Assembly: GCF_001886615.1 (NCBI RefSeq)
Contig: NZ_CP018139.1
Span: 806,001 to 870,000, forward strand
DNA: 64,000 nucleotides
Direction of reading: 5' to 3'
From: Halomonas aestuarii
GTDB lineage: Bacteria > Pseudomonadota > Gammaproteobacteria > Pseudomonadales > Halomonadaceae
Positions 10,323 to 36,853 of this stretch are shown here, in pieces; the stretch's first letter is position 1; every line of letters begins with the position of its first letter. The position numbers were made by a program, and so were the translations under genes. The notes under the pieces are model-generated. The model was not told where the DNA came from. It saw nothing but the letters and a program-made list of their open reading frames with translations, and did no database searches.

Positions 10323-10942
10323 GGCGTGTCCGGCTCCGGCGTGGTGGACTCGTCATGCCCCATGCAGGGGGCGTGCCAGAGGCCACCGAAAGCGCTCTGT
10401 ACACAGGGGCATAGAGATCGCCCACCGCAGGCGGCAGGGCTGACGCACCAGAAGCGAACACGAAAACGCCCCACCATGGTGCGTCATGGAGAGCAGTACT
10501 CCTGCAGGACAAATTCCAGCGGATGGCATCTCACCATGATGAACCTGTGGACCTGAGATGAGTATATTCATGCCAACGTACGAGCTATCAGTTGGTGCCA
10601 TATCTAACACTTCCGCAAGTATATATTCTGAAAAAGCCGTCATTTTTCATGACAAGAATCTCCGATCATTTACGGATAAAAACCACTCTAATGATGAGAT
10701 CAATACCATTATAAAAATACACTTCGTAAAGGTTGGTTACATTTCTACCGTGCTATATTCTGTTCGAGTGGTGACCTTTTATTGGCAGCCATGTGGTGTG
10801 GCTGCATTTTAATTGCCTTCCTTCATGTCGCCTTCTACCAGTCAGTCCAATCGAAGGTTTTTACTGTCAAGAACAGCTATTCGCGAAGTGTATACCTAGC
10901 CCGCCGATTGACGTTGGTCGTGGATACAATGGGAGATGGAAA
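10323..10942. other. 620-base gene-free leader before the first giant repeat protein
   Basis: No convincing gene is seen here. From about 10560 to 10930 the composition turns markedly AT-rich compared with the rest of the window, which suggests a promoter/regulatory region or acquired DNA. A weak sigma-70-like pair, TTGGTT near 10732 and TATATT near 10753, lies about 190 bases before the start codon. Short open frames on both strands here lack ribosome sites and recognisable content. Confidence 0.4.
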
Positions 10943-18139: not shown

Positions 18140-21100
18140 TTAGAGCAAGTTCACGGTGAAGTCGTCCGTCGCGGTATCGTTGTCGCCGTCCTCGAGCGTG
18201 GCGGTGAAGTCCATCGCGAGAGGTTCCGGTTCGAACTCCGTCTCGACGTCGAAGGAGATGATCGGGATCTTCACGGTTCCAAGCCCCATGGTGAACTGGA
18301 CCGCATCGATCTGGTTGACCTGGTTCTCACCGCTTTCAATGGTGAACGAGCTGCCGCCCTTTGCCTCCTTCGGCACCGACGTGTCGTTGTTGGCGTAATG
18401 GGTAAGGTCCAACTCCTCGACCAATATAGGCCCAGAGACGCTACCGTCTGCATAGTAGACGGTGTAGTAGAGGTCCTCCGTCGCCGTATCGTAGCCCTGC
18501 ACCGTGCTCGAGATATAGACCGTCACGCTGTCGACGAGCGTCTCCGGGTTGACGACGAAGCTCTCGTCCCCCGAGGTGATCGTCGTGCCAGCGAACGCCC
18601 CGGTGCCGTCCCCCTCATCGGCGCCATCGAGGTTGTTGTTGTTGATGCCGATGCCTGCCGTCGACACGTTCATCTGCGTCCCCGGGTTGACCAGGTCGGG
18701 CAGCGGCAGCAACGCCTCGATCTCCTCCTCCGTCAGATCGAGCTCGCCGCGGACGACGAGGTCGAGGATGCTGTCGATGTCTACGGGCTCCGCCGGATCC
18801 GACCGGACCGCTGTCGGCACCGCGCCGAAGAACACGATGTCGTCATTGCCAGCATCGGTCGGCGGCTCGCCACCGAACAAGAGGGTCCTCACTTCATCCG
18901 GCCCACCGGCCTTCAGGGTGCCCTGCGAGGTATCGAAGGTCGAGGTCGAGGTAGGCAAATCGTCGATGACGATGCTGTAGGTATCGGCGACGGGATCGAA
19001 GGTGAGGCTGAAGTCGACCGTCTGCTCATTGATGACTCCGTCGTCCGTGAAGTCGCCCGTGACCGATCCCGCCCACGAGAGGTTGCCCGTCCTGGCGAAC
19101 GTGCTGTTGGTGGTGGAGGTCGTTTGCGTCCCGTTGGCGTCGATCTCGAAGCTGTCGAACGTCACGTTCAGCGAGTCGAAGCCATCCGCCCCAGGCAGGT
19201 CGGACCACGTGCCATCTGCTCCCGCCTGGTAGGTCCCCGACGCGTCATTCACGGTCACCGCCGGCCCGTCATCGCCGAAGCGCACGTTGCCGCCGAGGTC
19301 GAGCGCCTCGGAGTTGACGCCGCTGGTGTCACCCTCGCTGTCGGTGGTCTCGGCCGAGGCCACCAGCTCGACCAGCCCGTTGGCCAGCTCCCGCACGTCA
19401 ACGATATAGGCACCCTCGTACTCGTCGGTCGTGCCGTGGTCGATCACCGCGCTCTGGGTCTGCGTCAGCACGCCCGTCGTGGCGTTCAGCGCCAGGGTGA
19501 AGACCGTGAAGCCGTCACCTGCGCCCTCCGACGTATCCGTCGAGCCGGTCACCAGGGTGCCGTCATCGTTGATGTAGAGTCTGATCGGATCGCCGCCCGA
19601 GGTCAGGCCCGAGGGATCACCCTCCGCCACACCGGTCGCCAGTTGCAGCGCGTAGGAGACGACCGTCGAGTCGCCGCCGTCGGCGCCGAAGTCGTCCTGG
19701 ATGCCGATCGTGAAGGCGGTGGAGAAGTCGACCACCGCGACCAGCGGCGTGCTCGTGCTGGTGTCGTCGCCGCTCTCGGTGCCGGTGAAGTTGCCGTCGG
19801 TCAGCCCACCGTCGAAGGTCAACCCGACCGGTTCGGCCCCGCTCAGGGCCACTGTCGGATCGGCCGGCCCGTCGTCGCCGAAGCGCACGTTGCCGCCGAG
19901 GTCGAGCGCCTCGGAGTTGACGCCGCTGGTGTCACCCTCGCTGTCGGTGGTCTCGGCCGAGGCCACCAGCTCGACCAGCCCGTTGGCCAGCTCCCGCACG
20001 TCAACGATATAGGCACCCTCGTACTCGTCGGTCGTGCCGTGGTCGATCACCGCGCTCTGGGTCTGCGTCAGCACGCCCGTCGTGGCGTTCAGCGCCAGGG
20101 TGAAGACCGTGAAGCCGTCACCTGCGCCCTCCGACGTATCCGTCGAGCCGGTCACCAGGGTGCCGTCATCGTTGATGTAGAGTCTGATCGGATCGCCGCC
20201 CGAGGTCAGGCCCGAGGGATCACCCTCCGCCACACCGGTCGCCAGTTGCAGCGCGTAGGAGACGACCGTCGAGTCGCCGCCGTCGGCGCCGAAGTCGTCC
20301 TGGATGCCGATCGTGAAGGCGGTGGAGAAGTCGACCACCGCGACCAGCGGCGTGCTCGTGCTGGTGTCGTCGCCGCTCTCGGTGCCGGTGAAGTTGCCGT
20401 CGGTCAGCCCGCCGTCGAAGGTCAACCCGACCGGTTCGGCCCCGCTCAGGGCCACTGTCGGATCGGCCGGCCCGTCGTCGCCGAAGCGCACGTTGCCGCC
20501 GAGGTCGAGCGCCTCGGAGTTGACGCCGCTGGTGTCACCCTCGCTGTCGGTGGTCTCGGCCGAGGCCACCAGCTCGACCAGCCCGTTGGCCAGCTCCCGC
20601 ACGTCAACGATATAGGCACCCTCGTACTCGTCGGTCGTGCCGTGGTCGATCACCGCGCTCTGGGTCTGCGTCAGCACGCCCGTCGTGGCGTTCAGCGCCA
20701 GGGTGAAGACCGTGAAGCCGTCACCTGCGCCCTCCGACGTATCCGTCGAGCCGGTCACCAGGGTGCCGTCATCGTTGATGTAGAGTCTGATCGGATCGCC
20801 GCCCGAGGTCAGGCCCGAGGGATCACCCTCCGCCACACCGGTCGCCAGTTGCAGCGCGTAGGAGACGACCGTCGAGTCGCCGCCGTCGGCGCCGAAGTCG
20901 TCCTGGATGCCGATCGTGAAGGCGGTGGAGAAGTCGACCACCGCGACCAGCGGCGTGCTCGTGCTGGTGTCGTCGCCGCTCTCGGTGCCGGTGAAGTTGC
21001 CGTCGGTCAGCCCACCGTCGAAGGTCAACCCGACCGGTTCGGCCCCGCTCAGGGCCACTGTCGGATCGGCCGGCCCGTCGTCGCCGAAGCGCACGTTGCC

Positions 21101-24100
21101 GCCGAGGTCGAGCGCCTCGGAGTTGACGCCGCTGGTGTCACCCTCGCTGTCGGTGGTCTCGGCCGAGGCCACCAGCTCGACCAGCCCGTTGGCCAGCTCC
21201 CGCACGTCAACGATATAGGCACCCTCGTACTCGTCGGTCGTGCCGTGGTCGATCACCGCGCTCTGGGTCTGCGTCAGCACGCCCGTCGTGGCGTTCAGCG
21301 CCAGGGTGAAGACCGTGAAGCCGTCACCTGCGCCCTCCGACGTATCCGTCGAGCCGGTCACCAGGGTGCCGTCATCGTTGATGTAGAGTCTGATCGGATC
21401 GCCGCCCGAGGTCAGGCCCGAGGGATCACCCTCCGCCACACCGGTCGCCAGTTGCAGCGCGTAGGAGACGACCGTCGAGTCGCCGCCGTCGGCGCCGAAG
21501 TCGTCCTGGATGCCGATCGTGAAGGCGGTGGAGAAGTCGACCACCGCGACCAGCGGCGTGCTCGTGCTGGTGTCGTCGCCGCTCTCGGTGCCGGTGAAGT
21601 TGCCGTCGGTCAGCCCGCCGTCGAAGGTCAACCCGACCGGTTCGGCCCCGCTCAGGGCCACTGTCGGATCGGCCGGCCCGTCGTCGCCGAAGCGCACGTT
21701 GCCGCCGAGGTCGAGCGCCTCGGAGTTGACGCCGCTGGTGTCACCCTCGCTGTCGGTGGTCTCGGCCGAGGCCACCAGCTCGACCAGCCCGTTGGCCAGC
21801 TCCCGCACGTCAACGATATAGGCACCCTCGTACTCGTCGGTCGTGCCGTGGTCGATCACCGCGCTCTGGGTCTGCGTCAGCACGCCCGTCGTGGCGTTCA
21901 GCGCCAGGGTGAAGACCGTGAAGCCGTCACCTGCGCCCTCCGACGTATCCGTCGAGCCGGTCACCAGGGTGCCGTCATCGTTGATGTAGAGTCTGATCGG
22001 ATCGCCGCCCGAGGTCAGGCCCGAGGGATCACCCTCCGCCACACCGGTCGCCAGTTGCAGCGCGTAGGAGACGACCGTCGAGTCGCCGCCGTCGGCGCCG
22101 AAGTCGTCCTGGATGCCGATCGTGAAGGCGGTGGAGAAGTCGACCACCGCGACCAGCGGCGTGCTCGTGCTGGTGTCGTCGCCGCTCTCGGTGCCGGTGA
22201 AGTTGCCGTCGGTCAGCCCACCGTCGAAGGTCAACCCGACCGGTTCGGCCCCGCTCAGGGCCACTGTCGGATCGGCCGGCCCGTCGTCGCCGAAGCGCAC
22301 GTTGCCGCCGAGGTCGAGCGCCTCGGAGTTGACGCCGCTGGTGTCACCCTCGCTGTCGGTGGTCTCGGCCGAGGCCACCAGCTCGACCAGCCCGTTGGCC
22401 AGCTCCCGCACGTCAACGATATAGGCACCCTCGTACTCGTCGGTCGTGCCGTGGTCGATCACCGCGCTCTGGGTCTGCGTCAGCACGCCCGTCGTGGCGT
22501 TCAGCGCCAGGGTGAAGACCGTGAAGCCGTCACCTGCGCCCTCCGACGTATCCGTCGAGCCGGTCACCAGGGTGCCGTCATCGTTGATGTAGAGTCTGAT
22601 CGGATCGCCGCCCGAGGTCAGGCCCGAGGGATCACCCTCCGCCACACCGGTCGCCAGTTGCAGCGCGTAGGAGACGACCGTCGAGTCGCCGCCGTCGGCG
22701 CCGAAGTCGTCCTGGATGCCGATCGTGAAGGCGGTGGAGAAGTCGACCACCGCGACCAGCGGCGTGCTCGTGCTGGTGTCGTCGCCGCTCTCGGTGCCGG
22801 TGAAGTTGCCGTCGGTCAGCCCGCCGTCGAAGGTCAACCCGACCGGTTCGGCCCCGCTCAGGGCCACTGTCGGATCGGCCGGCCCGTCGTCGCCGAAGCG
22901 CACGTTGCCGCCGAGGTCGAGCGCCTCGGAGTTGACGCCGCTGGTGTCACCCTCGCTGTCGGTGGTCTCGGCCGAGGCCACCAGCTCGACCAGCCCGTTG
23001 GCCAGCTCCCGCACGTCAACGATATAGGCACCCTCGTACTCGTCGGTCGTGCCGTGGTCGATCACCGCGCTCTGGGTCTGCGTCAGCACGCCCGTCGTGG
23101 CGTTCAGCGCCAGGGTGAAGACCGTGAAGCCGTCACCTGCGCCCTCCGACGTATCCGTCGAGCCGGTCACCAGGGTGCCGTCATCGTTGATGTAGAGTCT
23201 GATCGGATCGCCGCCCGAGGTCAGGCCCGAGGGATCACCCTCCGCCACACCGGTCGCCAGTTGCAGCGCGTAGGAGACGACCGTCGAGTCGCCGCCGTCG
23301 GCGCCGAAGTCGTCCTGAATGCCGATCGTGAAGGCGGTGGAGAAGTCGACCACCGCGACCAGCGGCGTGCTCGTGCTGGTGTCGTCGCCGCTCTCGGTGC
23401 CGGTGAAGTTGCCGTCGGTCAGCCCGCCGTCGAAGGTCAACCCGACCGGTTCGGCCCCGCTCAGGGCCACTGTCGGATCGGCCGGCCCGTCGTCGCCGAA
23501 GCGCACGTTGCCGCCGAGGTCGAGCGCCTCGGAGTTGACGCCGCTGGTGTCACCCTCGCTGTCGGTGGTCTCGGCCGAGGCCACCAGCTCGACCAGCCCG
23601 TTGGCCAGCTCCCGCACGTCAACGATATAGGCACCCTCGTACTCGTCGGTCGTGCCGTGGTCGATCACCGCGCTCTGGGTCTGCGTCAGCACGCCCGTCG
23701 TGGCGTTCAGCGCCAGGGTGAAGACCGTGAAGCCGTCACCTGCGCCCTCCGACGTATCCGTCGAGCCGGTCACCAGGGTGCCGTCATCGTTGATGTAGAG
23801 TCTGATCGGATCGCCGCCCGAGGTCAGGCCCGAGGGATCACCCTCCGCCACACCGGTCGCCAGTTGCAGCGCGTAGGAGACGACCGTCGAGTCGCCGCCG
23901 TCGGCGCCGAAGTCGTCCTGGATGCCGATCGTGAAGGCGGTGGAGAAGTCGACCACCGCGACCAGCGGCGTGCTCGTGCTGGTGTCGTCGCCGCTCTCGG
24001 TGCCGGTGAAGTTGCCGTCGGTCAGCCCGCCGTCGAAGGTCAACCCGACCGGTTCGGCCCCGCTCAGGGCCACTGTCGGATCGGCCGGCCCGTCGTCACC

Positions 24101-25948
24101 GAAGCGCACGTTGCCGCCGAGGTCGAGCGTGCTGCTAACCACGTTCGACACGTCGTGATCGCCATCGGTGGTCTCGGCCGAGGCCACCAGCTCGACCAGC
24201 CCGTTGGCCAGCGCCCGCTCGTCAACGATATAGGCACCCTCGTAGGTGTCGGTCGTGCCGTGGTCGATCACCGCGCTCTGGGTCTGCGTCAGCACGCCCG
24301 TCGTGGTGTCGAGCGCCAGGGTGAAGACGGTGTTGCCGGCCGCGACCGAGGCCTCGTCCCCGGCGGTAGAGCCGGTCACCAGGGTGCCGTCATCGTTGAT
24401 GTAGAGTCTGATCGGATCGCCGTCCGAGGTCAGGCCCGACGCGGTACCCTCCGCCACCGCGAGCTGCAGCGCGTAGGAGACGACCGACTCTCCGGCACCG
24501 TCGGCCCCGAAGTCGTTGAGGTTGCCGATGGTGAAGGCGTCGGAGAAGTCGACCACCGCGATCGTCGGCGAGGCGTTGGTGTCGTCGGAGCTCTCCGCAC
24601 CGGTGAAGTTGCCGTCCGGCTGAAGCCCGCCGTCGAAGGTCAGCCCGACCGGGTCGTCCCCGCTCAGGGCCACCGTCGGGTCGCCCGGCCCGTCATCGTA
24701 AAAGGAGATCTTCGACCCGATCTCGTCGGTATCCCCGGCGACTTCGGTCAAGGCGAATCCTCCCAGGTCGAAGCTCACGTTCGACCCCTTACCGCTCTCC
24801 GGCTGGGCATTCTCGATGAGGACTCGCTGGTGATCGGCCACCGTCGTATAGCCCACGACATCGCCGGCTTTCACACCGGAGACGATGACCCCGTCGCCAT
24901 CTGTAGTGAAAGACACGGAAGTACCGTTGATCGTGACACCCGTAATTAGCACAGGCACGTCGTCGGCGTCCCCGAGACCGTCCAAGAAATTGACCCCTGT
25001 CTCGAGATCGGTCGTGTAGGCGGTGATCCGCATGCTGACCGTCGTGTTCCCGCCTGGATTGACCTGCGAGACCGTCACGGACGCCCCGCGGGCGTCTGTC
25101 AGTGCCAAGGGCGTGATGTTGGCCTCGACGTCCGCCTCGGTCTGACTGAGGTTCGGCACGATGTAGTCATCAGGGGTCGAGGATGTCGACCCGGACGCGA
25201 AGGTGAAGTAGAGGCCTTCACCCGCCTTGACCTGCTGACCGTTCGTGCCGAGGCTCGTGTCGGTGTTCCCGCTCGTGTTCACGGTGTCGCCGGAGGAGAT
25301 GTTCTCCCCTTCCGACTGGTTGGCCGGATCGCGCCCGGTCACGATGATCGACTGATCCAGGTCGCCGAACCACATGAAGAGGTTGCTGCCCGGAGGCGCA
25401 CCAGCGAAGCTGAATTCCTGCGACTCGAAGGCGGTCACGTAGACGAGATTCGCGAGGTCGTAGGACGCGTCGTGGTCGTTGCCGTCACCGTCGTTGAGTT
25501 GGTCCGCACCATCGTGCTCGATGGCGTCGTATTCCACGACCCAGATGCTGGATTCAAGCGGATCACCTGCCGGTTCCGTGAGATAGATCGCGAACACGAT
25601 CTCATCGGTCATTTCGTCCCGACCCAGGACGATGTTGTCGTTATCCGTGTCGGTGTAGAGCAGGATATCGTTTCCCGTGGAGGTCCGGTCGAACCCGCTG
25701 TCCACGCCGTCCAATGGTTGCCCGTCGCTGCCGGTAAGAGCGACGTTGCCGAGGGTTCCCGTCGGCGAATACCGCACCGCGCTGCCGGAACTGACGGCGG
25801 CTTCGTCGGGACTCGCCGTAGCGCCGAGGGCGGCCAAGCGAGCTAAAAAGTCGGACGGAGGCGTAGTGGCGGTGTCGTCCTGCTGCAGGCCAGCGGTTTC
25901 ATCGATTCCGACCCCGGGAACGAGAATTTGCACAAGTGACTCAGACAT
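18140..25948 (-). CDS. Giant DUF5801/T1SS-143-type repeat adhesin (2602 aa)
   Basis: A 2602-residue, highly acidic protein with no Sec signal. The N-terminus has IDETAGLQQDD, the DETxGLQ signature at the head of DUF5801 repeat proteins, and about 350 residues of unique sequence. Ten DUF5801-like units follow, each beginning FGDDGPADPTVALSGAEPVG; eight are nearly identical 201-residue copies. The C-terminus has about 600 unique residues ending DNDTATDDFTVNLL, an acidic/hydrophobic tail like those of RTX-type type I secretion substrates. GGAGG lies nine bases before the ATG, and that ATG overlaps the stop of the small upstream ORF by eight bases. The ABC/HlyD pair just upstream on the same strand should export it. 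No LapA-style retention or LapG cleavage motif was recognised. Confidence 0.88.
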   Translation of the reverse strand: MSESLVQILVPGVGIDETAGLQQDDTATTPPSDFLARLAALGATASPDEAAVSSGSAVRYSPTGTLGNVALTGSDGQPLDGVDSGFDRTSTGNDILLYTDTDNDNIVLGRDEMTDEIVFAIYLTEPAGDPLESSIWVVEYDAIEHDGADQLNDGDGNDHDASYDLANLVYVTAFESQEFSFAGAPPGSNLFMWFGDLDQSIIVTGRDPANQSEGENISSGDTVNTSGNTDTSLGTNGQQVKAGEGLYFTFASGSTSSTPDDYIVPNLSQTEADVEANITPLALTDARGASVTVSQVNPGGNTTVSMRITAYTTDLETGVNFLDGLGDADDVPVLITGVTINGTSVSFTTDGDGVIVSGVKAGDVVGYTTVADHQRVLIENAQPESGKGSNVSFDLGGFALTEVAGDTDEIGSKISFYDDGPGDPTVALSGDDPVGLTFDGGLQPDGNFTGAESSDDTNASPTIAVVDFSDAFTIGNLNDFGADGAGESVVSYALQLAVAEGTASGLTSDGDPIRLYINDDGTLVTGSTAGDEASVAAGNTVFTLALDTTTGVLTQTQSAVIDHGTTDTYEGAYIVDERALANGLVELVASAETTDGDHDVSNVVSSTLDLGGNVRFGDDGPADPTVALSGAEPVGLTFDGGLTDGNFTGTESGDDTSTSTPLVAVVDFSTAFTIGIQDDFGADGGDSTVVSYALQLATGVAEGDPSGLTSGGDPIRLYINDDGTLVTGSTDTSEGAGDGFTVFTLALNATTGVLTQTQSAVIDHGTTDEYEGAYIVDVRELANGLVELVASAETTDSEGDTSGVNSEALDLGGNVRFGDDGPADPTVALSGAEPVGLTFDGGLTDGNFTGTESGDDTSTSTPLVAVVDFSTAFTIGIQDDFGADGGDSTVVSYALQLATGVAEGDPSGLTSGGDPIRLYINDDGTLVTGSTDTSEGAGDGFTVFTLALNATTGVLTQTQSAVIDHGTTDEYEGAYIVDVRELANGLVELVASAETTDSEGDTSGVNSEALDLGGNVRFGDDGPADPTVALSGAEPVGLTFDGGLTDGNFTGTESGDDTSTSTPLVAVVDFSTAFTIGIQDDFGADGGDSTVVSYALQLATGVAEGDPSGLTSGGDPIRLYINDDGTLVTGSTDTSEGAGDGFTVFTLALNATTGVLTQTQSAVIDHGTTDEYEGAYIVDVRELANGLVELVASAETTDSEGDTSGVNSEALDLGGNVRFGDDGPADPTVALSGAEPVGLTFDGGLTDGNFTGTESGDDTSTSTPLVAVVDFSTAFTIGIQDDFGADGGDSTVVSYALQLATGVAEGDPSGLTSGGDPIRLYINDDGTLVTGSTDTSEGAGDGFTVFTLALNATTGVLTQTQSAVIDHGTTDEYEGAYIVDVRELANGLVELVASAETTDSEGDTSGVNSEALDLGGNVRFGDDGPADPTVALSGAEPVGLTFDGGLTDGNFTGTESGDDTSTSTPLVAVVDFSTAFTIGIQDDFGADGGDSTVVSYALQLATGVAEGDPSGLTSGGDPIRLYINDDGTLVTGSTDTSEGAGDGFTVFTLALNATTGVLTQTQSAVIDHGTTDEYEGAYIVDVRELANGLVELVASAETTDSEGDTSGVNSEALDLGGNVRFGDDGPADPTVALSGAEPVGLTFDGGLTDGNFTGTESGDDTSTSTPLVAVVDFSTAFTIGIQDDFGADGGDSTVVSYALQLATGVAEGDPSGLTSGGDPIRLYINDDGTLVTGSTDTSEGAGDGFTVFTLALNATTGVLTQTQSAVIDHGTTDEYEGAYIVDVRELANGLVELVASAETTDSEGDTSGVNSEALDLGGNVRFGDDGPADPTVALSGAEPVGLTFDGGLTDGNFTGTESGDDTSTSTPLVAVVDFSTAFTIGIQDDFGADGGDSTVVSYALQLATGVAEGDPSGLTSGGDPIRLYINDDGTLVTGSTDTSEGAGDGFTVFTLALNATTGVLTQTQSAVIDHGTTDEYEGAYIVDVRELANGLVELVASAETTDSEGDTSGVNSEALDLGGNVRFGDDGPADPTVALSGAEPVGLTFDGGLTDGNFTGTESGDDTSTSTPLVAVVDFSTAFTIGIQDDFGADGGDSTVVSYALQLATGVAEGDPSGLTSGGDPIRLYINDDGTLVTGSTDTSEGAGDGFTVFTLALNATTGVLTQTQSAVIDHGTTDEYEGAYIVDVRELANGLVELVASAETTDSEGDTSGVNSEALDLGGNVRFGDDGPAVTVNDASGTYQAGADGTWSDLPGADGFDSLNVTFDSFEIDANGTQTTSTTNSTFARTGNLSWAGSVTGDFTDDGVINEQTVDFSLTFDPVADTYSIVIDDLPTSTSTFDTSQGTLKAGGPDEVRTLLFGGEPPTDAGNDDIVFFGAVPTAVRSDPAEPVDIDSILDLVVRGELDLTEEEIEALLPLPDLVNPGTQMNVSTAGIGINNNNLDGADEGDGTGAFAGTTITSGDESFVVNPETLVDSVTVYISSTVQGYDTATEDLYYTVYYADGSVSGPILVEELDLTHYANNDTSVPKEAKGGSSFTIESGENQVNQIDAVQFTMGLGTVKIPIISFDVETEFEPEPLAMDFTATLEDGDNDTATDDFTVNLL
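19262..24085 (-). repeat. 8 x 603-bp tandem coding repeat (201-aa DUF5801 unit)
   Basis: Eight units of exactly 603 bases, almost identical. One diagnostic silent site (plus-strand CCACCGTCG or CCGCCGTCG near 19806 + n x 603) reads A, G, A, G, A, G, G, G from left to right. Unit 7 alone has TCCTGAATG near 23316 where the others have TCCTGGATG. The alternation in units 1-6 suggests growth by 1206-base two-unit blocks. A further divergent unit follows on the right. Confidence 0.97.
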
Positions 25949-26195
25949 TGCCAGCTTCCTCCAAAGAGAAGACTGATGAAAACGATGTTGACTCGCCGTG
26001 ACTCAGGCCCGCCTTGCGGGAGAGATTCGCGGGCTCAGCGAAGTCGAAAACGGGATCGGAACCGAACAGTGCCGCACTCTGCGCTGTCCTGTTCGCGGAG
26101 ACAGCAATCTCATCGTCCTCTGGCAGGTCTCCCGCCGTTTCATCGACCGTGATCGGGTTCGTTACATCCAGGATGTCTTCATGTTGTTCTGCCAT
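25941..26195 (-). CDS. Small ORF resembling an adhesin N-terminus, coupled to the giant gene
   Basis: An 84-residue ORF with GAGGTGG before its ATG. Its sequence contains VTNPITVDETAGDL, DEIAVS and EPANLSRKAGL, which align in order with the first 60 residues of the 1639-aa adhesin (VTNPISVDETPDV, DEIMVS, VPANLSCKEDM). The DNA leader upstream (26196-26290) is also close to that of the 1639-aa gene (34886-34960). It ends in ATGTCTGA, overlapping the start of the 2602-aa gene, so translation is probably coupled. It may be a relic N-terminus severed when another adhesin body was joined in, or a kept leader/accessory peptide. Confidence 0.6.
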   Translation of the reverse strand: MAEQHEDILDVTNPITVDETAGDLPEDDEIAVSANRTAQSAALFGSDPVFDFAEPANLSRKAGLSHGESTSFSSVFSLEEAGNV

Positions 26196-26328: not shown

Positions 26329-27694
26329 TCATTCTTCCCTGATGGCCCTGGCCAGCATGTCGGTGATCGGCTTGGTGATGTAGCTGGCGAAGGTCCGTTC
26401 GCCGGTGCGGATCATCGCCTCGGCCGGCATCCCGGACAGCAGCTGCATCTGGTCGGTCATGTCCTGGCGTCCGTCGTCGGTAACCTCCAGCCGCACCCGG
26501 TAGAAACGCACGCCCGTGGCTTCGTCCACCTGACTGTCGGCGCTGACGAAGACCACCCGCGCCGCAATGACGTGGGTCGAGCGCCGGTTGAAGGCGGAGA
26601 AGCGGATCTCGGCGGGCTGACCGACATAGAGCTGGTTGACGTCACGGTCCGGCACCCTGGCCTCGACCAGGAAGCTGTCGTTGACCGGGACGATATCCAG
26701 CAGCGGATCGCCGGCGCGCACCACATCCCCCACCGAGTGCACCCGGCGTTCCACGACGATGCCCGCCACCGGCGCCGTGACCGTGGTGCGCCCCACCTGG
26801 TCCATGAGGTCGACGATCTGCTCCTCGGCCTCGGTGGCCCGGGTCTGGGCCTCGCGCAGCTGCTCGCCGATCTCGCCCTGATACTCCTGCACCGTGATCT
26901 CGTGCTGCACGCGGCTCTCGCTGATCCGGGACCCCAGCCGGGCGATCTCGGCGCGGTGGCTGGCGATCTCGCTGGAGAGCTCCAAGAGGTCGCGCTCCAC
27001 CTCGCGCAGGCGCTGGTTGCCGACCATCCGCTTGCTGAACAACTTGCGCAGGTCGGCCACCTCGGTGCGCAGCGACGCGGCGTGCCGCTCCCCGATCTGG
27101 ACCATCTCCTCGAGTCCCTCGACCTGGCGCTGCAACTGCACGGCCTGCTCGTCCAGCGCCTCCAGGGTGCCCCGCTGGGATTGCCGCCGCGCCATGAACA
27201 GCGCCTGCTGAACGGCAAGGACTTCCTGCACCCGCGGCAGGTCGCTATGGGTCAGCTCCTCGGAAAAGCGCAGTTCGTCATCGCCCCGCTGCTCGGCCAG
27301 CAGCCGCAGTGCGGTGGCTCGCCCGTCCAGGTACTGGGTACGCGCCATCTGGAGCCGTGTGCGCACCCGGGTGTCGTCTAGCACCACCAGCGGTTGTCCC
27401 GCCTCGACACGATCACCGTCGGCGACCAGTATCTGGCGAACGATCCCGCCCTCGAGGTGCTGCACCGAGCGTCGGAAGCTTTCCACGGTCACATGGCCGG
27501 GCGCCACCACGGCCACCGCCAGGTTGGCGGTGGCGGCCCAGCCACCGAAGCCGCCCAGAGCCAGCACCAACACCAGCATGCCGAAGCGCCGATAGGGTCG
27601 ATGGTTGTCGGGCACCACGTGGTATTCCCCCTCCAGCACCGCGGGCTCGGGCGTCCGGGCACCCTCCTGGAGCGAGAGGGCCCGAGAGGTATCG

Positions 27695-27714
<20 letters not shown>
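26329..27714 (-). CDS. Type I secretion membrane-fusion (HlyD/PrtE-like) adaptor
   Basis: A 461-residue adaptor. A short cytoplasmic N-terminus is followed by one membrane helix (FGMLVLVLALGGFGGWAATA, about residues 44-63), then the lipoyl half-motifs VVAPGHVTVESFRRSVQHLEGG and VTAPVAGIVVERRVHSVGD flanking a long coiled-coil region (about residues 120-310). A C-terminal beta-barrel ends KPITDMLARAIREE, a PrtE/HlyD-type tail. It would link the inner-membrane ABC transporter to a TolC-like outer-membrane channel, which is not encoded here. Its start lies 20 bases inside the end of the ABC gene, so the two are co-translated. Confidence 0.93.
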
Positions 27715-29497
<1,783 letters not shown>

Positions 29498-29503
29498 CGG
29501 CAT

Positions 29504-29557
29504 CCATCCTTTAGAGCCCGTGGCTGGCATTACGAAGTGTTACAGGGCTCTGTGACT
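29504..29557 (-). promoter_or_regulatory. Hairpin in the leader of the type I secretion operon
   Basis: AGAGCCC near 29551-29557 and GGGCTCT near 29512-29518 (minus-strand sense) form a seven-base stem whose 3' arm lies directly before the AAAGGA ribosome site. The relic operon at 35185-35237 keeps the same arms (AGAGCCCT / AGGGCTCT) although the loop has changed. This hints at a conserved RNA structure; the function is unknown. Confidence 0.4.
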
Positions 29558-29624
29558 CAAGTTAGCAAGGGCCCATGGCACGGAACGCCTGAAAAAAGGC
29601 ACAAAACAATCCGCTTCGCGACGT

Positions 29625-29698
29625 CATAAACGGCGCGTGGCGGTACTAGGAAACCGGGCGGGGCGATGACCAGAAAAGCAGTATGGGGCGGCTGACTC
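29625..29698. repeat. Degenerate ~24-bp tandem repeats (duplicated array)
   Basis: About three imperfect units of the pattern AAAC-GCG-GGGCGGxGACT. A longer array of the same element follows glyA at 35310-35446. It was carried here by the duplication that also brought the glyA fragment. Confidence 0.55.
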
Positions 29699-29703
29699 GC
29701 CGC

Positions 29704-29813
29704 CGATGGCGGCGGTGTCGGAACCCTCGGCCATGACGTCGAGGATGTCGCAGATCCAGCCGGCGAGCTCGGGTCACTCGATTTCGGCGAAGCCGCGCTC
29801 GTTGAACATGGGG
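29704..29813 (-). pseudogene. glyA 3'-end fragment (duplication scar)
   Basis: The plus strand from GATGGCGGCGGTGTCG onward matches the end of the intact glyA (35525-35625), including the stretch encoding [14 protein letters not shown], with scattered changes and an in-frame stop. The last twenty or so glyA codons are missing and the homology ends near 29813. There is no start codon or upstream domain. The fragment marks the border of the tandem duplication. Confidence 0.85.
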
Positions 29814-29965: not shown

Positions 29966-32900
29966 TCACACCAAACCATCGCCATCGCCGTCGATGAAGT
30001 AGGCAAAGGTGTCGGCTACCTCATCGAAGTCGCCGTCCGTCGCCTCGACGGTAACCGTTCCCTGGATGTCCGGGATATCGGCGAACGTGAAGGCATAGAT
30101 CTCGGGCAGACGCCAGCCGTTGTCCAGCGGCTCGCCGCCGCCGGTGGGGGAATCCGTCACCTCGTGGATGAGGATGAGCTGGTCGAACTCGACACCCTCA
30201 TCAAACACGACCTCCTGGAGAGCATTGCCCTTGGGAAGGAGAAAGGTCTCTTCAGAGTACCCTACTTGAGTCCCGCCATCGTAGGCCGCCATCTTGAGGG
30301 TGAGAAAACCACCAGGAGACCCCGTCCCCCCATCAACGATGAACCTGACGCCCGCCACATCCTCGTGGAAGTTCAGCGCCAGTCCCTCGCCGGGATCGAA
30401 CTGCTGGTCCTTAAGCGCGGCCCCCTTGTTGCTGATGTTGATGTCGTCTGAGGCCGCCTCCGGATCGCCGACTTCCTTGTCGCCAGCCAGGTAGGTCCCC
30501 AGCAGGTCGGATGTATTCTGGCTAGTGAAGATGAACCCGTCCAGGGTCACGATCGGGGTGTCCGGGGCTTCCGGAAGGTTGATCTCCTCCACCGGGCCAC
30601 CGGGCGTGGTCGTGTCCTCGATCAGCGCCTCCTCGATGATGGGGGCGTCGATGAGCACTTCCGCGGTATAGCCGCCCGGTGCCGACCCATCGAGGGTGAC
30701 CCGGAAGAAGTCGCCGAAATCATCATCGCTCGCGCTCAGGGTCAGCGTCGAGCCATCGGGCGAGATGCTCCCGGAGATCGTGCCCATGACATCGTCGAGC
30801 AAGGGGCTGACGGTGAAGCCGGTGATCACGAAATCACCCTCCCCGTCGGCGCCATAGCTGAGGAACCCCGAGTCGCTGAAAAATCCCGCCGGCCCATCGA
30901 CGAACGCCAGCACCGGGGTATCCAGGATCAGTGGATCGATCGCCGGCCCGTCATCGGTGAAGGAGAGGTTGGCCGAGATGTCGATGTAGTCCGTCGCGGT
31001 GTCGGCCGCGGTCTCGTCGTCGCTGATGGTGCCCACGAGCCGGATCGCGTCGGCCACGCCGAGCCCGGTGGTGTCGCCGCTGTAGGGCGATGCCGTGTCG
31101 ATCGTGGCGTGCTGGACGGCGCGCAGCTGTTCCAGCGTCACGTCGCCGGTCGCCGCGTTCACCGAAACCGTGAAGACCAGGTCGTTCGTCCCCGTGGTGC
31201 GGCCCTCGATCACGCCGCTGCCGTTCAGGCTCACCGTCACCGCCTCGTTCGTGGCCGTGTCGACCAGCGTGGTCGCCGCGTTGACGCCCACCGCCAGGCT
31301 GTAGACGATGTCGTCACCATCGTTCTCGGTATCGGCCCCGGTCGAGGAGACGACCGAGAACAGGCTGCCCAGCCCTTCGGTGTCGGTATCCGTGCCGGTG
31401 CCGTCGCCTTCGTTGCCGCCGGCAAGATCACCGTCGTCGGTCTGCAGCACGCCGCCCTCGTTCGTCAGGGCGATGGTCGGCCCGTCGTCGGTGAACGAGA
31501 GGTTGCCGGAGATGTCGATGTAGTCCGACGCGGTGTCGGCCGTCGTCTCGTCATCGCTGATGGTGCCGACGAGCCGGATCGCGTCGGCCACGCCGAGCCC
31601 GGTGGTGTCACCGCTGTAGGGCGATACCGTGTCGGCGGTGGCGTGTTCGACGGCCCGCAGCTGGGTCAGCGTCACCGCGCCGGTCGCCGCATTGACCGAC
31701 ACCGTGAAGACCAGGTCGTTGGTCCCCGTGGTGCGGCCCTCGATCACGCCGCTGCCGTTCAGGCTCACCGTCACCGCCTCGTTCGTGGCCGTGTCGACCA
31801 GCGTGGTCGCCGCGTTGGCGCCCACCGCCAGGCTGTAGACGATGTCGTCACCATCGTTCTCGGTATCGGCCCCGGTCGAGGAGACGACCGAGAACAGGCT
31901 GCCCAGCCCTTCGGTGTCGGTATCCGTGCCGGTGCCGTCGCCTTCGTTGCCGCCCGCCAGATCACCGTCGTCGGTCTGCAGCACGCCGCCCTCGTTCGTC
32001 AGGGCGATGGTCGGCCCGTCGTCGGTGAACGAGAGGTTGCCGGAGATGTCGATGTAGTCCGACGCGGTGTCGGCCGTCGTCTCGTCATCGCTGATGGTGC
32101 CGACGAGCCGGATCGCGTCGGCCACGCCGAGCCCGGTGGTGTCACCGCTGTAGGGCGATACCGTGTCGGCGGTGGCGTGTTCGACGGCCCGCAGCTGGGT
32201 CAGCGTCACCGCGCCGGTCGCCGCGTTCACCGAAACCGTGAAGACCAGGTCGTTGGTCCCCGTGGTGCGGCCCTCGATCACGCCGCTGCCGTTCAGGCTC
32301 ACCGTCACCGCCTCGTTCGTGGCCGTGTCGACCAGCGTGGTCGCCGCGTTGGCGCCCACCGCCAGGCTGTAGACGATGTCGTCACCATCGTTCTCGGTAT
32401 CGGCCCCGGTCGAGGAGACGACCGAGAACAGGCTGCCCAGCCCTTCGGTGTCGGTATCCGTGCCGGTGCCGTCGCCTTCGTTGCCGCCGGCAAGATCACC
32501 GTCGTCGGTCTGCAGCACGCCGCCCTCGTTCGTCAGGGCGATGGTCGGCCCGTCGTCGGTGAACGAGAGGTTGCCGGAGATGTCGATGTAGTCCGACGCG
32601 GTGTCGGCCGTCGTCTCGTCATCGCTGATGGTGCCGACGAGCCGGATCGCGTCGGCCACGCCGAGCCCGGTGGTGTCACCGCTGTAGGGCGATACCGTGT
32701 CGGCGGTGGCGTGTTCGACGGCCCGCAGCTGGGTCAGCGTCACCGCGCCGGTCGCCGCGTTCACCGAAACCGTGAAGACCAGGTCGTTGGTCCCCGTGGT
32801 GCGGCCCTCGATCACGCCGCTGCCGTTCAGGCTCACCGTCACCGCCTCGTTCGTGGCCGTGTCGACCAGCGTGGTCGCCGCGTTGGCGCCCACCGCCAGG

Positions 32901-34885
32901 CTGTAGACGATGTCGTCACCATCGTTCTCGGTATCGGCCCCGGTCGAGGAGACGACCGAGAACAGGCTGCCCAGCCCTTCGGTGTCGGTATCCGTGCCGG
33001 TGCCGTCGCCTTCGTTGCCGCCCGCCAGATCACCGTCGTCGGTCTGCAGCACGCCGCCCTCGTTCGTCAGGGCGATGGTCGGCCCGTCGTCGGTGAACGA
33101 GAGGTTGCCGGAGATGTCGATGTAGTCCGACGCGGTGTCGGCCGTCGTCTCGTCATCGCTGATGGTGCCGACGAGCCGGATCGCGTCGGCCACGCCGAGC
33201 CCGGTGGTGTCACCGCTGTAGGGCGATACCGTGTCGGCGGTGGCGTGTTCGACGGCCCGCAGCTGGGTCAGCGTCACCGCGCCGGTCGCGGCATTGACCG
33301 ACACCGTGAAGACCAGGTCGTTGGTCCCCGTGGTGCGGCCCTCGATCACGCCGCTGCCGTTCAGGCTCACCGTCACCGCCTCGTTCGTGGCCGTGTCGAC
33401 CAGCGTGGTCGCCGCGTTGTTGCCCACCTCCAGGCTGTAGACGATGTCGTCCGTGGCGTTGGCGTCGTCGGCCCCGGTCGAGGAGGTCACCGAGAACAGG
33501 CTGCCCAGCCCTTTGGTGTCGGTGTCCGTACCGGTCCCGTCGCCTTCGTTGCCGCCCGCCAGGTCGCCGTCATCGGTCTGCAGAACGCCCACGCCGAGGG
33601 TCAGGTCGATGGCCGGGCCGTCATCGTAGAACACGAGGGTGATGGGATCCGCGTCGGTCTGGACATCGATGTCGGCGATGGAGTAATCGCCGATATTGAA
33701 CCTGGCGTTGCCCGTCCCGCCGTTCTCCACAAGGACCCGGTTGTGGTCGCCGAGGGTAAAGAAGGTGATGGTGTCGCCGGTGTTGATGCCTTCGACCGTC
33801 GCTACGCCGTCCACAATCGAAAATGACCACGTGGACGAACCGCTATGGGACTCACCATTGACGAGAATATCGATGATGTCGACGGGATTGTCGTCGAGAA
33901 TGCCCGGGATAAAGGCGGTGCCTTCCTCCTGTGTCGTACCACCTGAACCATCAGCGATAGTGCCATCTGCCGTGTACTGCGCGGTGAGAACAACCGTCGC
34001 GGTCGAACTGCCGGGCCCCACCTTGACGATGGTCAACGAGGCTTCCGTGGCCGTCTGCAGCGTGCCGAACTGGATGTTGTTCGGGTCGGCCGCCTCGGGA
34101 CCGGTCAGGCCGGGGACCAGGTACTGCGGGTCCATGTCGTTCACATAGGTGATGGCAAGGCCTTCGCCGGCGTTGATGTTGTTGCTGTTGGCGGCCAGCG
34201 ACGTGGGCTGGTTCTGGGCTTGGCTGCTGTTGACATCCTCGCCCACGGTACGGCCGGTCACCACGATCGCGACGCCCTCAGGGCCGGGCTGGCCGAACGC
34301 CATGAAAACGTTGTTCCCCGAGGGAGCCCCCGCGAAGTCGAACGAGACGCTCTGATCCACGGTGACATTGACGTAGAGGTTGGACAGCGTGAGCGTGTCG
34401 TCGGGGGTCGTATCGTCGAGATGCTCCTTCGGCAGGTAGTCCAGGAGATAGACGTCGGAAGATAGACCGTCCGGGTTCTCCACGATCACCGCGATAAAGG
34501 CGACGTTGCCCGACGTCGTCGTGCCGATGAGGATATTGTCATCGCTCGGGTCGGTGTTGAGCGTCACCGTTTCGTATAGCCCCGTATCGGGGTCGAGCGC
34601 CTTCAGCGGATTCCCATCGCCGTCGAGTGCCGTCAGGCCACTGACGGGGTCACCAGCCTCATTCTCTGCCCAGCCGAGGGTCGTGACCCCCTGCGGGGTG
34701 AGAATCATGTCCTCCTTGCAGGAGAGATTCGCGGGTACGCCGTAGTCGGTATCGAGATAGAGGGCGTAAACGGCGGGAATCGACACACCATCGCTGACCA
34801 TGATCTCGTCTTTCGGCGCGCCCTGCACGTCCGGGGTTTCGTCGACCGAGATGGGATTTGTGACTACCACTGTTCCTTCTGACAT
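29966..34885 (-). CDS. Giant DUF5801/T1SS-143-type repeat adhesin (1639 aa)
   Basis: A 1639-residue acidic protein without a Sec signal. The N-terminal module (VTNPISVDET, then about 420 unique residues including AGEGLAITYV and FAGAPSGNNVFM) resembles that of the 2602-aa protein (AGEGLYFTF, FAGAPPGSNLFM). Five DUF5801-like units of 178 residues follow (TDDGDLAGGNEGDGTG ... DYIDISGNLSFTDDGP). The last 380 residues are unique and end VADTFAYFIDGDGDGLV. It is a second probable type I secretion adhesin. The relic of its own transporter genes lies immediately upstream (34966-35172), so export must now depend on the transporter at 26329-29497 or one elsewhere. Confidence 0.87.
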   Translation of the reverse strand: MSEGTVVVTNPISVDETPDVQGAPKDEIMVSDGVSIPAVYALYLDTDYGVPANLSCKEDMILTPQGVTTLGWAENEAGDPVSGLTALDGDGNPLKALDPDTGLYETVTLNTDPSDDNILIGTTTSGNVAFIAVIVENPDGLSSDVYLLDYLPKEHLDDTTPDDTLTLSNLYVNVTVDQSVSFDFAGAPSGNNVFMAFGQPGPEGVAIVVTGRTVGEDVNSSQAQNQPTSLAANSNNINAGEGLAITYVNDMDPQYLVPGLTGPEAADPNNIQFGTLQTATEASLTIVKVGPGSSTATVVLTAQYTADGTIADGSGGTTQEEGTAFIPGILDDNPVDIIDILVNGESHSGSSTWSFSIVDGVATVEGINTGDTITFFTLGDHNRVLVENGGTGNARFNIGDYSIADIDVQTDADPITLVFYDDGPAIDLTLGVGVLQTDDGDLAGGNEGDGTGTDTDTKGLGSLFSVTSSTGADDANATDDIVYSLEVGNNAATTLVDTATNEAVTVSLNGSGVIEGRTTGTNDLVFTVSVNAATGAVTLTQLRAVEHATADTVSPYSGDTTGLGVADAIRLVGTISDDETTADTASDYIDISGNLSFTDDGPTIALTNEGGVLQTDDGDLAGGNEGDGTGTDTDTEGLGSLFSVVSSTGADTENDGDDIVYSLAVGANAATTLVDTATNEAVTVSLNGSGVIEGRTTGTNDLVFTVSVNAATGAVTLTQLRAVEHATADTVSPYSGDTTGLGVADAIRLVGTISDDETTADTASDYIDISGNLSFTDDGPTIALTNEGGVLQTDDGDLAGGNEGDGTGTDTDTEGLGSLFSVVSSTGADTENDGDDIVYSLAVGANAATTLVDTATNEAVTVSLNGSGVIEGRTTGTNDLVFTVSVNAATGAVTLTQLRAVEHATADTVSPYSGDTTGLGVADAIRLVGTISDDETTADTASDYIDISGNLSFTDDGPTIALTNEGGVLQTDDGDLAGGNEGDGTGTDTDTEGLGSLFSVVSSTGADTENDGDDIVYSLAVGANAATTLVDTATNEAVTVSLNGSGVIEGRTTGTNDLVFTVSVNAATGAVTLTQLRAVEHATADTVSPYSGDTTGLGVADAIRLVGTISDDETTADTASDYIDISGNLSFTDDGPTIALTNEGGVLQTDDGDLAGGNEGDGTGTDTDTEGLGSLFSVVSSTGADTENDGDDIVYSLAVGVNAATTLVDTATNEAVTVSLNGSGVIEGRTTGTNDLVFTVSVNAATGDVTLEQLRAVQHATIDTASPYSGDTTGLGVADAIRLVGTISDDETAADTATDYIDISANLSFTDDGPAIDPLILDTPVLAFVDGPAGFFSDSGFLSYGADGEGDFVITGFTVSPLLDDVMGTISGSISPDGSTLTLSASDDDFGDFFRVTLDGSAPGGYTAEVLIDAPIIEEALIEDTTTPGGPVEEINLPEAPDTPIVTLDGFIFTSQNTSDLLGTYLAGDKEVGDPEAASDDINISNKGAALKDQQFDPGEGLALNFHEDVAGVRFIVDGGTGSPGGFLTLKMAAYDGGTQVGYSEETFLLPKGNALQEVVFDEGVEFDQLILIHEVTDSPTGGGEPLDNGWRLPEIYAFTFADIPDIQGTVTVEATDGDFDEVADTFAYFIDGDGDGLV
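30949..33618 (-). repeat. 5 x 534-bp tandem coding repeat (178-aa DUF5801 unit)
   Basis: Five units with an exact 534-base period; the rightmost (first translated) unit is the most diverged (TKGLGSLFSVTSS). A silent marker (plus-strand CCGGCAAG versus CCCGCCAG near 31422, 31956, 32490 and 33024) alternates between successive units, again suggesting two-unit block duplication. Confidence 0.95.
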
Positions 34886-34965
34886 GACACACCTCCGCTC
34901 GTTACCCGGTCCCTGGATGTAAATGCTCCCTGCGGAATTCGATTGGTGTTAATGATCTGACTTAC
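34886..34965 (-). promoter_or_regulatory. Duplicated 5' leader of the 1639-aa adhesin gene
   Basis: The bases before the adhesin start closely match those before the small ORF at 26195 (26196-26290), including GATCCCTGGATGT-type and ATGCTCCCTGCGG blocks and the ATGATCTGAC segment. Conservation in non-coding DNA at both loci supports a shared leader copied by duplication. A specific promoter could not be picked out. Confidence 0.45.
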
Positions 34966-35172
34966 TCACTGGTCCGGCACCTTCCCGAAGGCGGTCTTGC
35001 ATTGTTCCCTGATGGCCCTGGCCAGCATGTCGGTGATCGGTTTGGTGGTGTAGATGGCGTGCACCTGCATCAGAAGGTTCACGAAAAGGCGAAAGAACCC
35101 CACCAGCGAGAAGGCGCCTTGACAGGTGCCCAAAGAGCGCTGCAGATCCGTGATATCGAGTTTGCTGGCCAT
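34966..35172 (-). pseudogene. Collapsed ABC/HlyD fusion relic of a second type I secretion operon
   Basis: An open frame whose first 40 or so codons (MASKLDITDLQRSLGTCQGA ... LLMQVHAIY) match the start of the ABC transporter at 29497. The next 17 codons (TKPITDMLARAIRE) match the last residues of the HlyD adaptor at 26329-27714. The join falls at GTGTAGATGGCG (35049-35060), which corresponds to ATGTAGATGGCG in the ABC gene (29373-29384) and ATGTAGCTGGCG in the HlyD gene (26378-26389). These lie 2995 bases apart in the intact operon. The HlyD stop is lost and the frame reads on eleven codons. It encodes no transporter; a small fusion peptide could still be made. Confidence 0.9.
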
Positions 35173-35184
35173 CGGCATCCACCC

Positions 35185-35237: not shown

Positions 35238-35309
35238 CGAATCACACTAGCAGGGGGACTTGGCAAAAAGCGGCTGAAAAAAGGCACGAAAGAGTCCGCC
35301 CCTCTCCGT

Positions 35310-35464: not shown

Positions 35465-36730
35465 TCAGCGATAGACGGGCAGGCGGGCGCAGACCGCCTC
35501 GACCTTGGCCTTCACCTCGGCCTCGATGGCGGCGGTGTCGTCACCGGCGGCCATGACGTCGAGGATGTCGCAGATCCAGCCGGCGAGCTCACGGCACTCG
35601 GTCTCGCCGAAGTCGCGGGTGGTCACCGCCGGGGTGCCGATGCGCAGGCCCGAGGTCACGAAGGGGCTCTGGGGATCGCCGGGCACGGCGTTCTTGTTGA
35701 CGGTGATGTGGGCACGGCCCAGGGCGGCGTCCGCATCCTTGCCGGTCAGGCCCTGCTTGATCAGCGAGAGCAGGAAGAGGTGGTCCTCGGTGCCGCCGGA
35801 GACGATGTCGAAGCCGCGCTCGATGAACACGCCGGCCATGGCCTGGGCGTTCTTGACCACCTGCTGCTGGTAGGTCTTGAAGCCAGGCTCCATGGCCTCC
35901 TTGAAGCACACCGCCTTGGCGGCGATGACGTGCTCCAGCGGGCCGCCCTGGCCGCCCGGGAAGACCGCGGACTGCAGCTTCTTCTCGATGGCCTCATCGC
36001 CCTCGGCGGAGAGGATCAGGCCGCCGCGCGGACCGCGCAGGGTCTTGTGGGTGGTGGTGGTGACCACGTGGGCGTGGGGCAGCGGGGTCGGATAGACCCC
36101 GGCGGCCACCAGGCCGGCGATGTGGGCCATGTCGACCAGCAGGAAGGCGCCCACCTCGTCGGCGATCTCGCGGAACCGGGCCCAGTCGATGATCTGGGAG
36201 TAGGCGGAGAAGCCGGCGATGATCATCTTCGGCTGGTGCTCGCGGGCCAGGCGCGCCACCTCGTCGTAATCGATCAGGCCCTGCTCGTCGAGGCCGTACT
36301 GCACGGCATGGTAGTGCTTGCCGGAGAAGTTCGGCTTGGCGCCGTGGGTGAGGTGCCCGCCCGCGTCGAGGCTCATGCCCAGAATGGTATCGCCTGGCTT
36401 GACCAGGGCCTGGAAGACGGCGCCGTTGGCCTGGGAGCCGGAGTGCGGCTGGACGTTGGCGTAACTGGCGCCGAACAGCTCCTTGGCATAGTCGATGGCC
36501 AGCTGCTCGACGATGTCGACGTACTCGCAGCCACCATAGTAGCGCTTGCCGGGATAGCCTTCCGCATACTTGTTGGTCAGCTGGCTGCCCTGGGCCTCGA
36601 GCACCCGGGGGCTCGCGTAGTTCTCGGAGGCGATCAGCTCGATGTGCGCCTCCTGGCGTGCGACTTCCTTCTGCATCGCATCGAACAGGACGTCATCGAA
36701 ACCGGCAATCTGCATGTCACGGCTGAACAT
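35465..36730 (-). CDS. glyA: Serine hydroxymethyltransferase
   Basis: A 421-residue PLP enzyme interconverting serine plus tetrahydrofolate with glycine plus 5,10-methylene-tetrahydrofolate in the cytoplasm. Family hallmarks: [54 protein letters not shown] and the PLP-lysine motif [16 protein letters not shown]. The start at 36730 ([15 protein letters not shown]) gives the standard family length; the frame is open 28 codons upstream without family similarity. It is apparently monocistronic. Its 3' end was copied to 29704-29813 during the neighbouring duplication. Confidence 0.98.
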
Positions 36731-36853
36731 CGGCGGGAAACCTCGCATCACGGGAGAATCTGGGGCCCACATGATACCCCACCCCCCGGCGGCTTTCACA
36801 TGAAAGGCGATCATGGGCCACCGCCGTCTCGTTCACGTCGGGCAGGGGGCGGC

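What the first reader, a model, noticed from the sequence alone, without database searches (positions are those of the whole stretch)
34966..35178. Type I secretion operon collapsed into an in-frame ABC/HlyD fusion by a ~3.0-kb microhomology deletion
The relic joins the first ~40 codons of the ABC gene to the last ~17 codons of the HlyD gene. The junction GTGTAGATGGCG corresponds to ATGTAGATGGCG in the intact ABC gene (29373) and ATGTAGCTGGCG in the intact HlyD gene (26378), 2995 bases apart. The frame stays open because the frame offset of the two genes equals the deletion's remainder. This is a readable fossil of how a duplicated secretion operon was streamlined to one transporter serving two adhesins.
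Basis: seen in the sequence. Interest (0 to 1): 0.8.

Follow-up and report, generated by a model that had tools for sequence, protein, structure and literature searches.

The report
Collapsed second copy of secretion operon
The 70-codon reading frame looks like the worn-down stump of a duplicated protein-export operon whose transporter genes were deleted while the stretch in front of a giant repeat protein stayed in place; a related Halomonas shows similar losses with different break points.

Summary
ORF 34966-35178(-) is 43 codons of the ABC gene's start joined to the last 16 codons of the HlyD gene, plus 11 codons of readthrough. The junction lies in CTACA, inside an 11-of-12 match of the two intact genes; 57 of 2.5 million ABC x HlyD 12-mer pairs match that well. 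The matching sites lie 2995 bases apart in the intact copy. A glyA-tail copy upstream of the intact ABC gene independently shows tandem duplication. A relic 72-75% identical to the intact copy, in a one-contig genome, is not an assembly collapse.

The framing needs correction. The open frame looks incidental: the HlyD stop is lost, R, Q and H entered the hydrophobic stretch, and the scars in relative G016 carry indels. What is kept lies upstream: 93 of 100 positions invariant in five intact ABC upstream regions are kept in three collapsed copies, against 234 of 334 others. G016 has two collapsed copies with other break points; G095 has an HlyD 3' scar before its adhesin. I read this as recurrent, promoter-sparing loss of redundant transporter genes. 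One transporter serving both adhesins is plausible, unproven: a second, LssB-type T1SS exists.

The parts
34966..35178 (-). Relic ORF, 70 aa: 43 ABC codons + 16 HlyD codons + 11 codons of readthrough from the lost HlyD stop on
35054..35182 (-). ABC-derived 5' part of the relic (start region kept; R, Q and H entered the hydrophobic stretch)
35047..35054 (-). Deletion junction, resolved to seven equivalent positions in the CTACA common to both parent genes
34999..35053 (-). HlyD-derived 3' part, former stop codon included (now TGC)
34886..34998 (-). HlyD-to-adhesin intergenic region, homologous to the one after the intact HlyD gene
35248..35281 (-). Kept promoter-like element TTTTTCA-N22-TGCTA upstream of the relic
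29563..29596 (-). Same element upstream of the intact ABC gene
29966..34885 (-). Adh2, 1639-aa repeat protein (DUF5801 repeats), the intact gene of the collapsed unit; 'adhesin' is inferred from its make-up
29687..29812 (-). Duplicated glyA 3' fragment: trace of the tandem duplication
27695..29530 (-). Intact ABC gene (PrtD-type T1SS permease/ATPase)
26329..27714 (-). Intact HlyD-family adaptor gene
25941..26195 (-). 84-codon ORF resembling the Adh2 N-terminus, shared with G016, without sign of protein-level constraint (w 1.1)
18140..25948 (-). Adh1, 2602-aa repeat protein downstream of the intact operon; 'adhesin' is inferred
35465..36814 (-). glyA (SHMT), left flank of the duplicated locus

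Best explanation
A tandem duplication starting in the 3' end of glyA made a second [promoter-ABC-HlyD-adhesin] unit. In the glyA-proximal copy a deletion of about 3.0 kb, at a short imperfect repeat (CGCCA.CTACAT), removed nearly all of ABC and HlyD. What is left is the upstream region, the start of ABC, the tail of HlyD and the complete adhesin gene Adh2. The unit works as a separate adhesin gene driven by its own copy of the T1SS promoter/leader (inferred), with export supplied in trans by the intact ABC-HlyD pair (inferred). The 70-codon ORF is debris lying in the adhesin's leader, not a selected protein (inferred from its decay).
For: Homology to both parents and a sharply placed crossover. 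glyA-tail copy. Adh2 open over 1639 codons. Upstream: 93 of 100 columns invariant in 5 intact ABC upstream regions are kept in the 3 collapsed copies, against 234 of 334 other columns, Fisher P 4e-7. The element TTTTTCA-N22-TGCTA occurs 3 times in the genome, 2 of them here. ORF decay: lost stop, R, Q and H in the hydrophobic stretch and 8 N: 6 S on the relic branch. G016 scars with indels and stops. Parallel cases: G016 relA and relB, G095 HlyD scar. The intact ABC is the only one of 5 matches over the PrtD cut-off in the genome.
Against: No sigma-70-type promoter upstream of either copy; leader RNA folds no better than shuffles. One search lists two weak terminator-like sites on this strand (0.5 expected from shuffles): one upstream of the element, one inside the relic (35104-35088), which would work against transcription into Adh2. 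In 20-base blocks, relic against intact, the element does not stand out (14-15 of 20; the start region is best, 19 of 20). The five intact regions are those nearest kin that carry the element or a one-base variant; the other 9 of 14 aligned intact upstream regions lack it. Columns and copies are not independent, and some of the time precedes the collapse. G095's scar lacks the element. Transcription and export are untested.
Confidence: 0.76

Rival explanations
1. The duplication and a first partial deletion are ancestral to G000 and G016; the copies were later homogenised within each genome by gene conversion and eroded to different end points. G093 and G095 lost the extra unit. (A variant of the history, compatible with the kept-promoter reading.)
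For: Same order glyA-[collapsed unit with Adh2]-[ABC-HlyD-84-codon ORF-Adh1] in G000 and G016. Branching of relic, G000 and G093 is unresolved in the 5' tree, and the 3' tree resolves nothing.
Against: In the 5' tree the three G016 copies group together (100/100) and the relic groups with the G000 and G093 ABC (100/99). Break points are not nested: G000 keeps more ABC, G016 relA keeps more HlyD. No other glyA-tail fragment was seen by tblastn in the 19 fetched stretches or by blastn in two G016 upstream regions. The glyA-ABC gaps of G093 and G095, about 220 and 185 bases, leave no room for such a unit.
Confidence: 0.3
2. The fusion ORF is a functional small protein or leader peptide.
For: Open frame with start region kept (19 of 20 bases); relic against intact w 0.22 over 41 codons.
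Against: w is pulled down by the intact branch and by time before the collapse; on the relic branch N:S is 8:6, P 0.09. Stop lost, hydrophobic stretch disrupted. The protein search found only the window's own copy (the search needs shared 5-residue words). G016 scars carry indels and stops.
Confidence: 0.07
3. Assembly artefact: reads of one operon collapsed or mis-joined.
For: The adhesin genes beside it are long and repetitive, a known assembly hazard.
Against: Relic and intact copy differ at 25-28% of bases, flanks included, so the relic cannot be built from reads of the intact copy; one contig, 99.98% complete.
Confidence: 0.02
4. Adhesin cassettes carrying the HlyD 3' end moved in by recombination; no full second ABC-HlyD copy ever existed here.
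For: HlyD 3' scars sit before Adh2 in G000, G016 and G095; in G095 the element is not found at the scar.
Against: In G000 the relic region also holds the ABC 5' end and the upstream region, in operon order and orientation, and a glyA tail was copied too.
Confidence: 0.12

Closest known systems
PrtD-type type I secretion operon (NCBIfam TIGR01842 ABC + TIGR01843 HlyD) with giant repeat substrates
   Same: The intact pair passes both curated cut-offs and lies next to repeat proteins of 1639 and 2602 residues
   Different: The finding is a collapsed copy with neither gene complete; no TolC-type gene was sought
Duplicated pseudogene or gene remnant formed by tandem duplication and short-homology deletion (general knowledge, recalled)
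   Same: Duplicated flank, short-homology junction, decaying frame
   Different: The upstream region keeps its constrained positions, and similar collapses are found in a related species
Tandem duplication that activates a horizontally transferred gene in bacteria (PMC11111574; search listing and start of abstract seen only)
   Same: Tandem duplication in a bacterial genome tied to the expression of a gene
   Different: From the part seen, that is an experimental method on transferred genes; here an old duplication was pruned inside one copy
CsgD-controlled BapA-type adhesin with its own T1SS (recalled, from no call)
   Same: Large repeat protein beside a T1SS; G086 and G102 carry a CsgD-like regulator between HlyD and the adhesin
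   Different: The G086 regulator scores 118.8 bits against a CsgD cut-off of 250; in G000 the best relative lies elsewhere (1736052); control of this locus is untested

Membership tests
PrtD-type T1SS (intact operon) | ABC passes TIGR01842 cut-off | tested here: met
   749.7 bits against 510.15; the only one of 5 listed genome matches over the cut-off
PrtD-type T1SS (intact operon) | Adaptor passes TIGR01843 cut-off | tested here: met
   358.2 bits against 208.65
PrtD-type T1SS (intact operon) | TolC-like outer-membrane partner | not tested
   no search made
PrtD-type T1SS (intact operon) | Adh1 and Adh2 are its substrates | tested here: inconclusive
   adjacent genes and a loosely shared C-terminal DGD pattern; a second T1SS exists
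Functional T1SS component (the relic itself) | Membrane, ATPase or adaptor domain recognisable | tested here: not met
   no Pfam or NCBIfam match at E 0.001
Collapsed tandem duplicate | Homology to both ends of the operon, in order, with flanks | tested here: met
Collapsed tandem duplicate | Duplicated flanking sequence outside the operon | tested here: met
   glyA tail, 86% over 102 bases
Collapsed tandem duplicate | Short homology at the junction | tested here: met
   11 of 12, judged on the intact copy
Collapsed tandem duplicate | Intact second operon in a near strain | not testable with these tools
   one genome per species is held

The most novel reading that the evidence does not exclude
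In this group of Halomonas, giant-adhesin arrays grow by tandem duplication of the whole promoter-ABC-HlyD-adhesin operon, after which the redundant transporter genes are repeatedly and independently pruned while each adhesin keeps a copy of the transporter promoter. HlyD 3' scars before adhesin genes would then be a general sign of this route from one secretion system with one substrate to one system with several.
Probability: 0.45. Interest if true: 0.5.

Novelty: new member of a known kind. Interest (0 to 1): 0.36.

Why it matters
How a T1SS locus comes to have several substrates for one transporter is seldom visible in sequence (my judgement, from general knowledge). Here a duplicated flank, a scar of roughly known age, a kept upstream region and separate scars in a relative show a possible route, and they give a searchable signature: a HlyD 3' end without a HlyD gene, just before an adhesin gene.

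Tried and rejected
Leader-RNA structure as the kept feature: six folds, z between -0.61 and 0.31, dropped. Sigma-70 promoter scan: none found at either copy. Selection on the fusion ORF: not supported. The 84-codon ORF 25941-26195 as a conserved small gene: 66% aa identity to G016 looked like a gene, but dN is about dS (w 1.1), so a shared remnant is more likely. Horizontal exchange of the Adh1 start between G000 and G016: dS of the 84-codon ORF and the first 200 Adh1 codons (0.17-0.33) is in line with HlyD (0.30) and glyA (0.23), so no sign of it. Plasmid collection: no match to the relic region. 3' flank tree: nothing resolved. A first Fisher test on the element (36 of 36 against 292 of 389) was set aside because the motif had been chosen with the relics in view; defines the columns from intact copies only, though those five genomes were still picked as the near kin that carry the element or a one-base variant.

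Rows dropped: the ABC row (wrong frame on one side, meaningless); the G016 Adh2 fragment row (wrong frame).

Literature: six searches, listings and starts of abstracts seen only, no paper opened; I saw no listed title that describes this locus or this route. Absence from print beyond these searches is not claimed.

Full report
WHAT IS THERE. The window is bases 806001-870000 of a one-contig 3.54-Mb genome. On the minus strand the order is glyA (35465-36814), relic ORF (34966-35178), Adh2 (29966-34885), glyA-tail fragment (29687-29812), ABC (27695-29530), HlyD (26329-27714), an 84-codon ORF (25941-26195), Adh1 (18140-25948). A tandem-95-repeat protein lies on the opposite strand beyond Adh1. 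'Adhesin' is inferred from size, repeats and neighbours; no adhesin model was matched by Adh1 or Adh2.

THE OBSERVATION. The two intact 12-mers and the 2995-base interval are as stated; the relic's 12-mer starts at 35048. The relic protein is 43 residues of the ABC start up to AIY, 16 residues of the HlyD end, and 11 residues of readthrough. The best crossover, seven equivalent positions, falls in the CTACA that both genes share, inside an 11-of-12 match; 57 of 2.5 million 12-mer pairs of the two intact genes match as well. This is judged on the surviving copy, not on the lost one. The relic matches its two parents well beyond 500 block shuffles.

DUPLICATION. The homology runs upstream of the ABC start (75% over 326 bases) and downstream of the HlyD end (146 of 181). 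A copy of the glyA tail, 86% over 102 bases, lies upstream of the intact ABC gene, as a tandem duplication beginning in glyA would leave. Divergence of 25-28% argues strongly against an assembly collapse.

TIMING. Over 41 codons dS is 0.55 for relic against intact and 0.55 for intact against G093. A tree of the 5' region puts the relic, the G000 ABC and the G093 ABC together (100/99) without resolving their order. The duplication is therefore roughly as old as the split from G093, on short sequences. The 3' tree resolves nothing.

THE FUSION FRAME LOOKS INCIDENTAL. Of 22 differences between the relic and the intact ABC start, 14 fall on the relic branch (8 N, 6 S), 7 on the intact branch (2 N, 5 S), 1 is ambiguous. 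By site numbers 76% N would be expected without selection; 8 or fewer N of 14 has P 0.09, and part of that time the gene was intact. S to R, L to Q and P to H sit in or at the hydrophobic stretch where the ABC membrane domain begins, and the HlyD stop codon is lost. The protein search found only the window's own copy.

THE UPSTREAM REGION IS KEPT. TTTTTCA-N22-TGCTA stands before the ABC gene in G000, G095, G016 and G079, and with one base changed (CTTTTCA) in G093, with unrelated spacers, and before the three collapsed copies (G016 relB with a spacer of 21); the other 9 of 14 intact upstream regions aligned lack it. The pattern occurs 38 times in 27 of 90 genomes, 6 of them at this locus, against 7 for the reversed control; 3 in G000, 2 of them here. 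Columns invariant in five intact upstream regions are kept in the three collapsed copies at 93 of 100, other columns at 234 of 334 (P 4e-7). The columns are not independent, part of the time precedes the collapse, and 20-base blocks show no sharp peak at the element. No sigma-70 match was found, no unusual RNA fold, and one of two weak terminator-like sites lies inside the relic. Promoter retention is thus a supported inference, not a shown fact.

PARALLEL CASES. G016 reads glyA, relA (ABC start, last 74-80 codons of HlyD), a stump of Adh2, ABC, HlyD, the 84-codon ORF, Adh1, relB (about 106 HlyD codons, no clear ABC coding), Adh2, which runs towards the contig end. relA and relB group with G016's own ABC (100/100), and their break points differ from each other and from the window's. 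G095 carries about 97 bases of HlyD tail before its adhesin (score 38, best of 500 shuffles 21), without the element nearby. A search of 90 genomes with the first 60 residues of ABC gave 79 places in 53 genomes; 2 of the 79 (the window's relic and G016 relA) lie in open frames under 100 aa, the rest in frames of 584 aa or more. That search missed relB and would miss other short scars. Adh2-type N-termini stand beside this operon in 5 of 90 genomes (E up to 1e-15; two further weaker matches are Adh1 and a second G102 place); 3 of the 5 have HlyD scars (G000, G016, G095), and the other two, G086 and G102, have a CsgD-like regulator between HlyD and the adhesin (below the CsgD cut-off for G086).

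TWO READINGS OF THE HISTORY. Independent duplication and pruning in each lineage fits the 5' tree, the non-nested break points and the glyA fragment seen only in G000. A shared ancestral array with gene conversion fits the shared gene order. I favour the first, moderately.

EXPORT. The intact ABC is the only one of 5 listed genome matches over the PrtD cut-off, but an LssB-type T1SS lies at 79.7-81.4 kb of the genome; three further ABC exporters among the five were not typed. Adh1 and Adh2 share only a loose C-terminal pattern. One transporter for both is likely but untested.

VERDICT. A genuine, well preserved scar of a known kind of event, made more interesting by its kept upstream region and by recurrence in a relative.

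Noticed in passing
window 25941-26195 (-) and L066 14413-14661: An 84-codon ORF between HlyD and Adh1, resembling the Adh2 N-terminus, shared with G016 at 84% nt and 66% aa identity but with dN about equal to dS: probably the stump of an earlier adhesin.
   Followed up: partly
L069 4988-5698 (-), L070 about 15.4-16.1 kb (+): CsgD-like regulator gene between HlyD and the adhesin in G086 and G102; the G086 one scores below the CsgD cut-off. In G000 the best relative is elsewhere, at genome position 1736052.
   Followed up: partly
window 10793-17674 (+): Tandem-95-repeat protein convergent to the locus; its C-terminal part lies directly next to HlyD in G093, G079, G094, G062, G067, G032 and G106, so it may be the older neighbour and substrate.
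   Followed up: no
L064 10474-15309, L069 1915-4599: Adhesins with an Adh2-type N-terminal part and an Adh1-type C-terminal part: mosaic adhesins at the same locus.
   Followed up: no
genome pattern hits such as G063:C10:169548: A recurring sequence beginning TTTTTCATATTT and ending in TGCTA at places outside this locus in 14 of the 90 genomes, unexplained.
   Followed up: no
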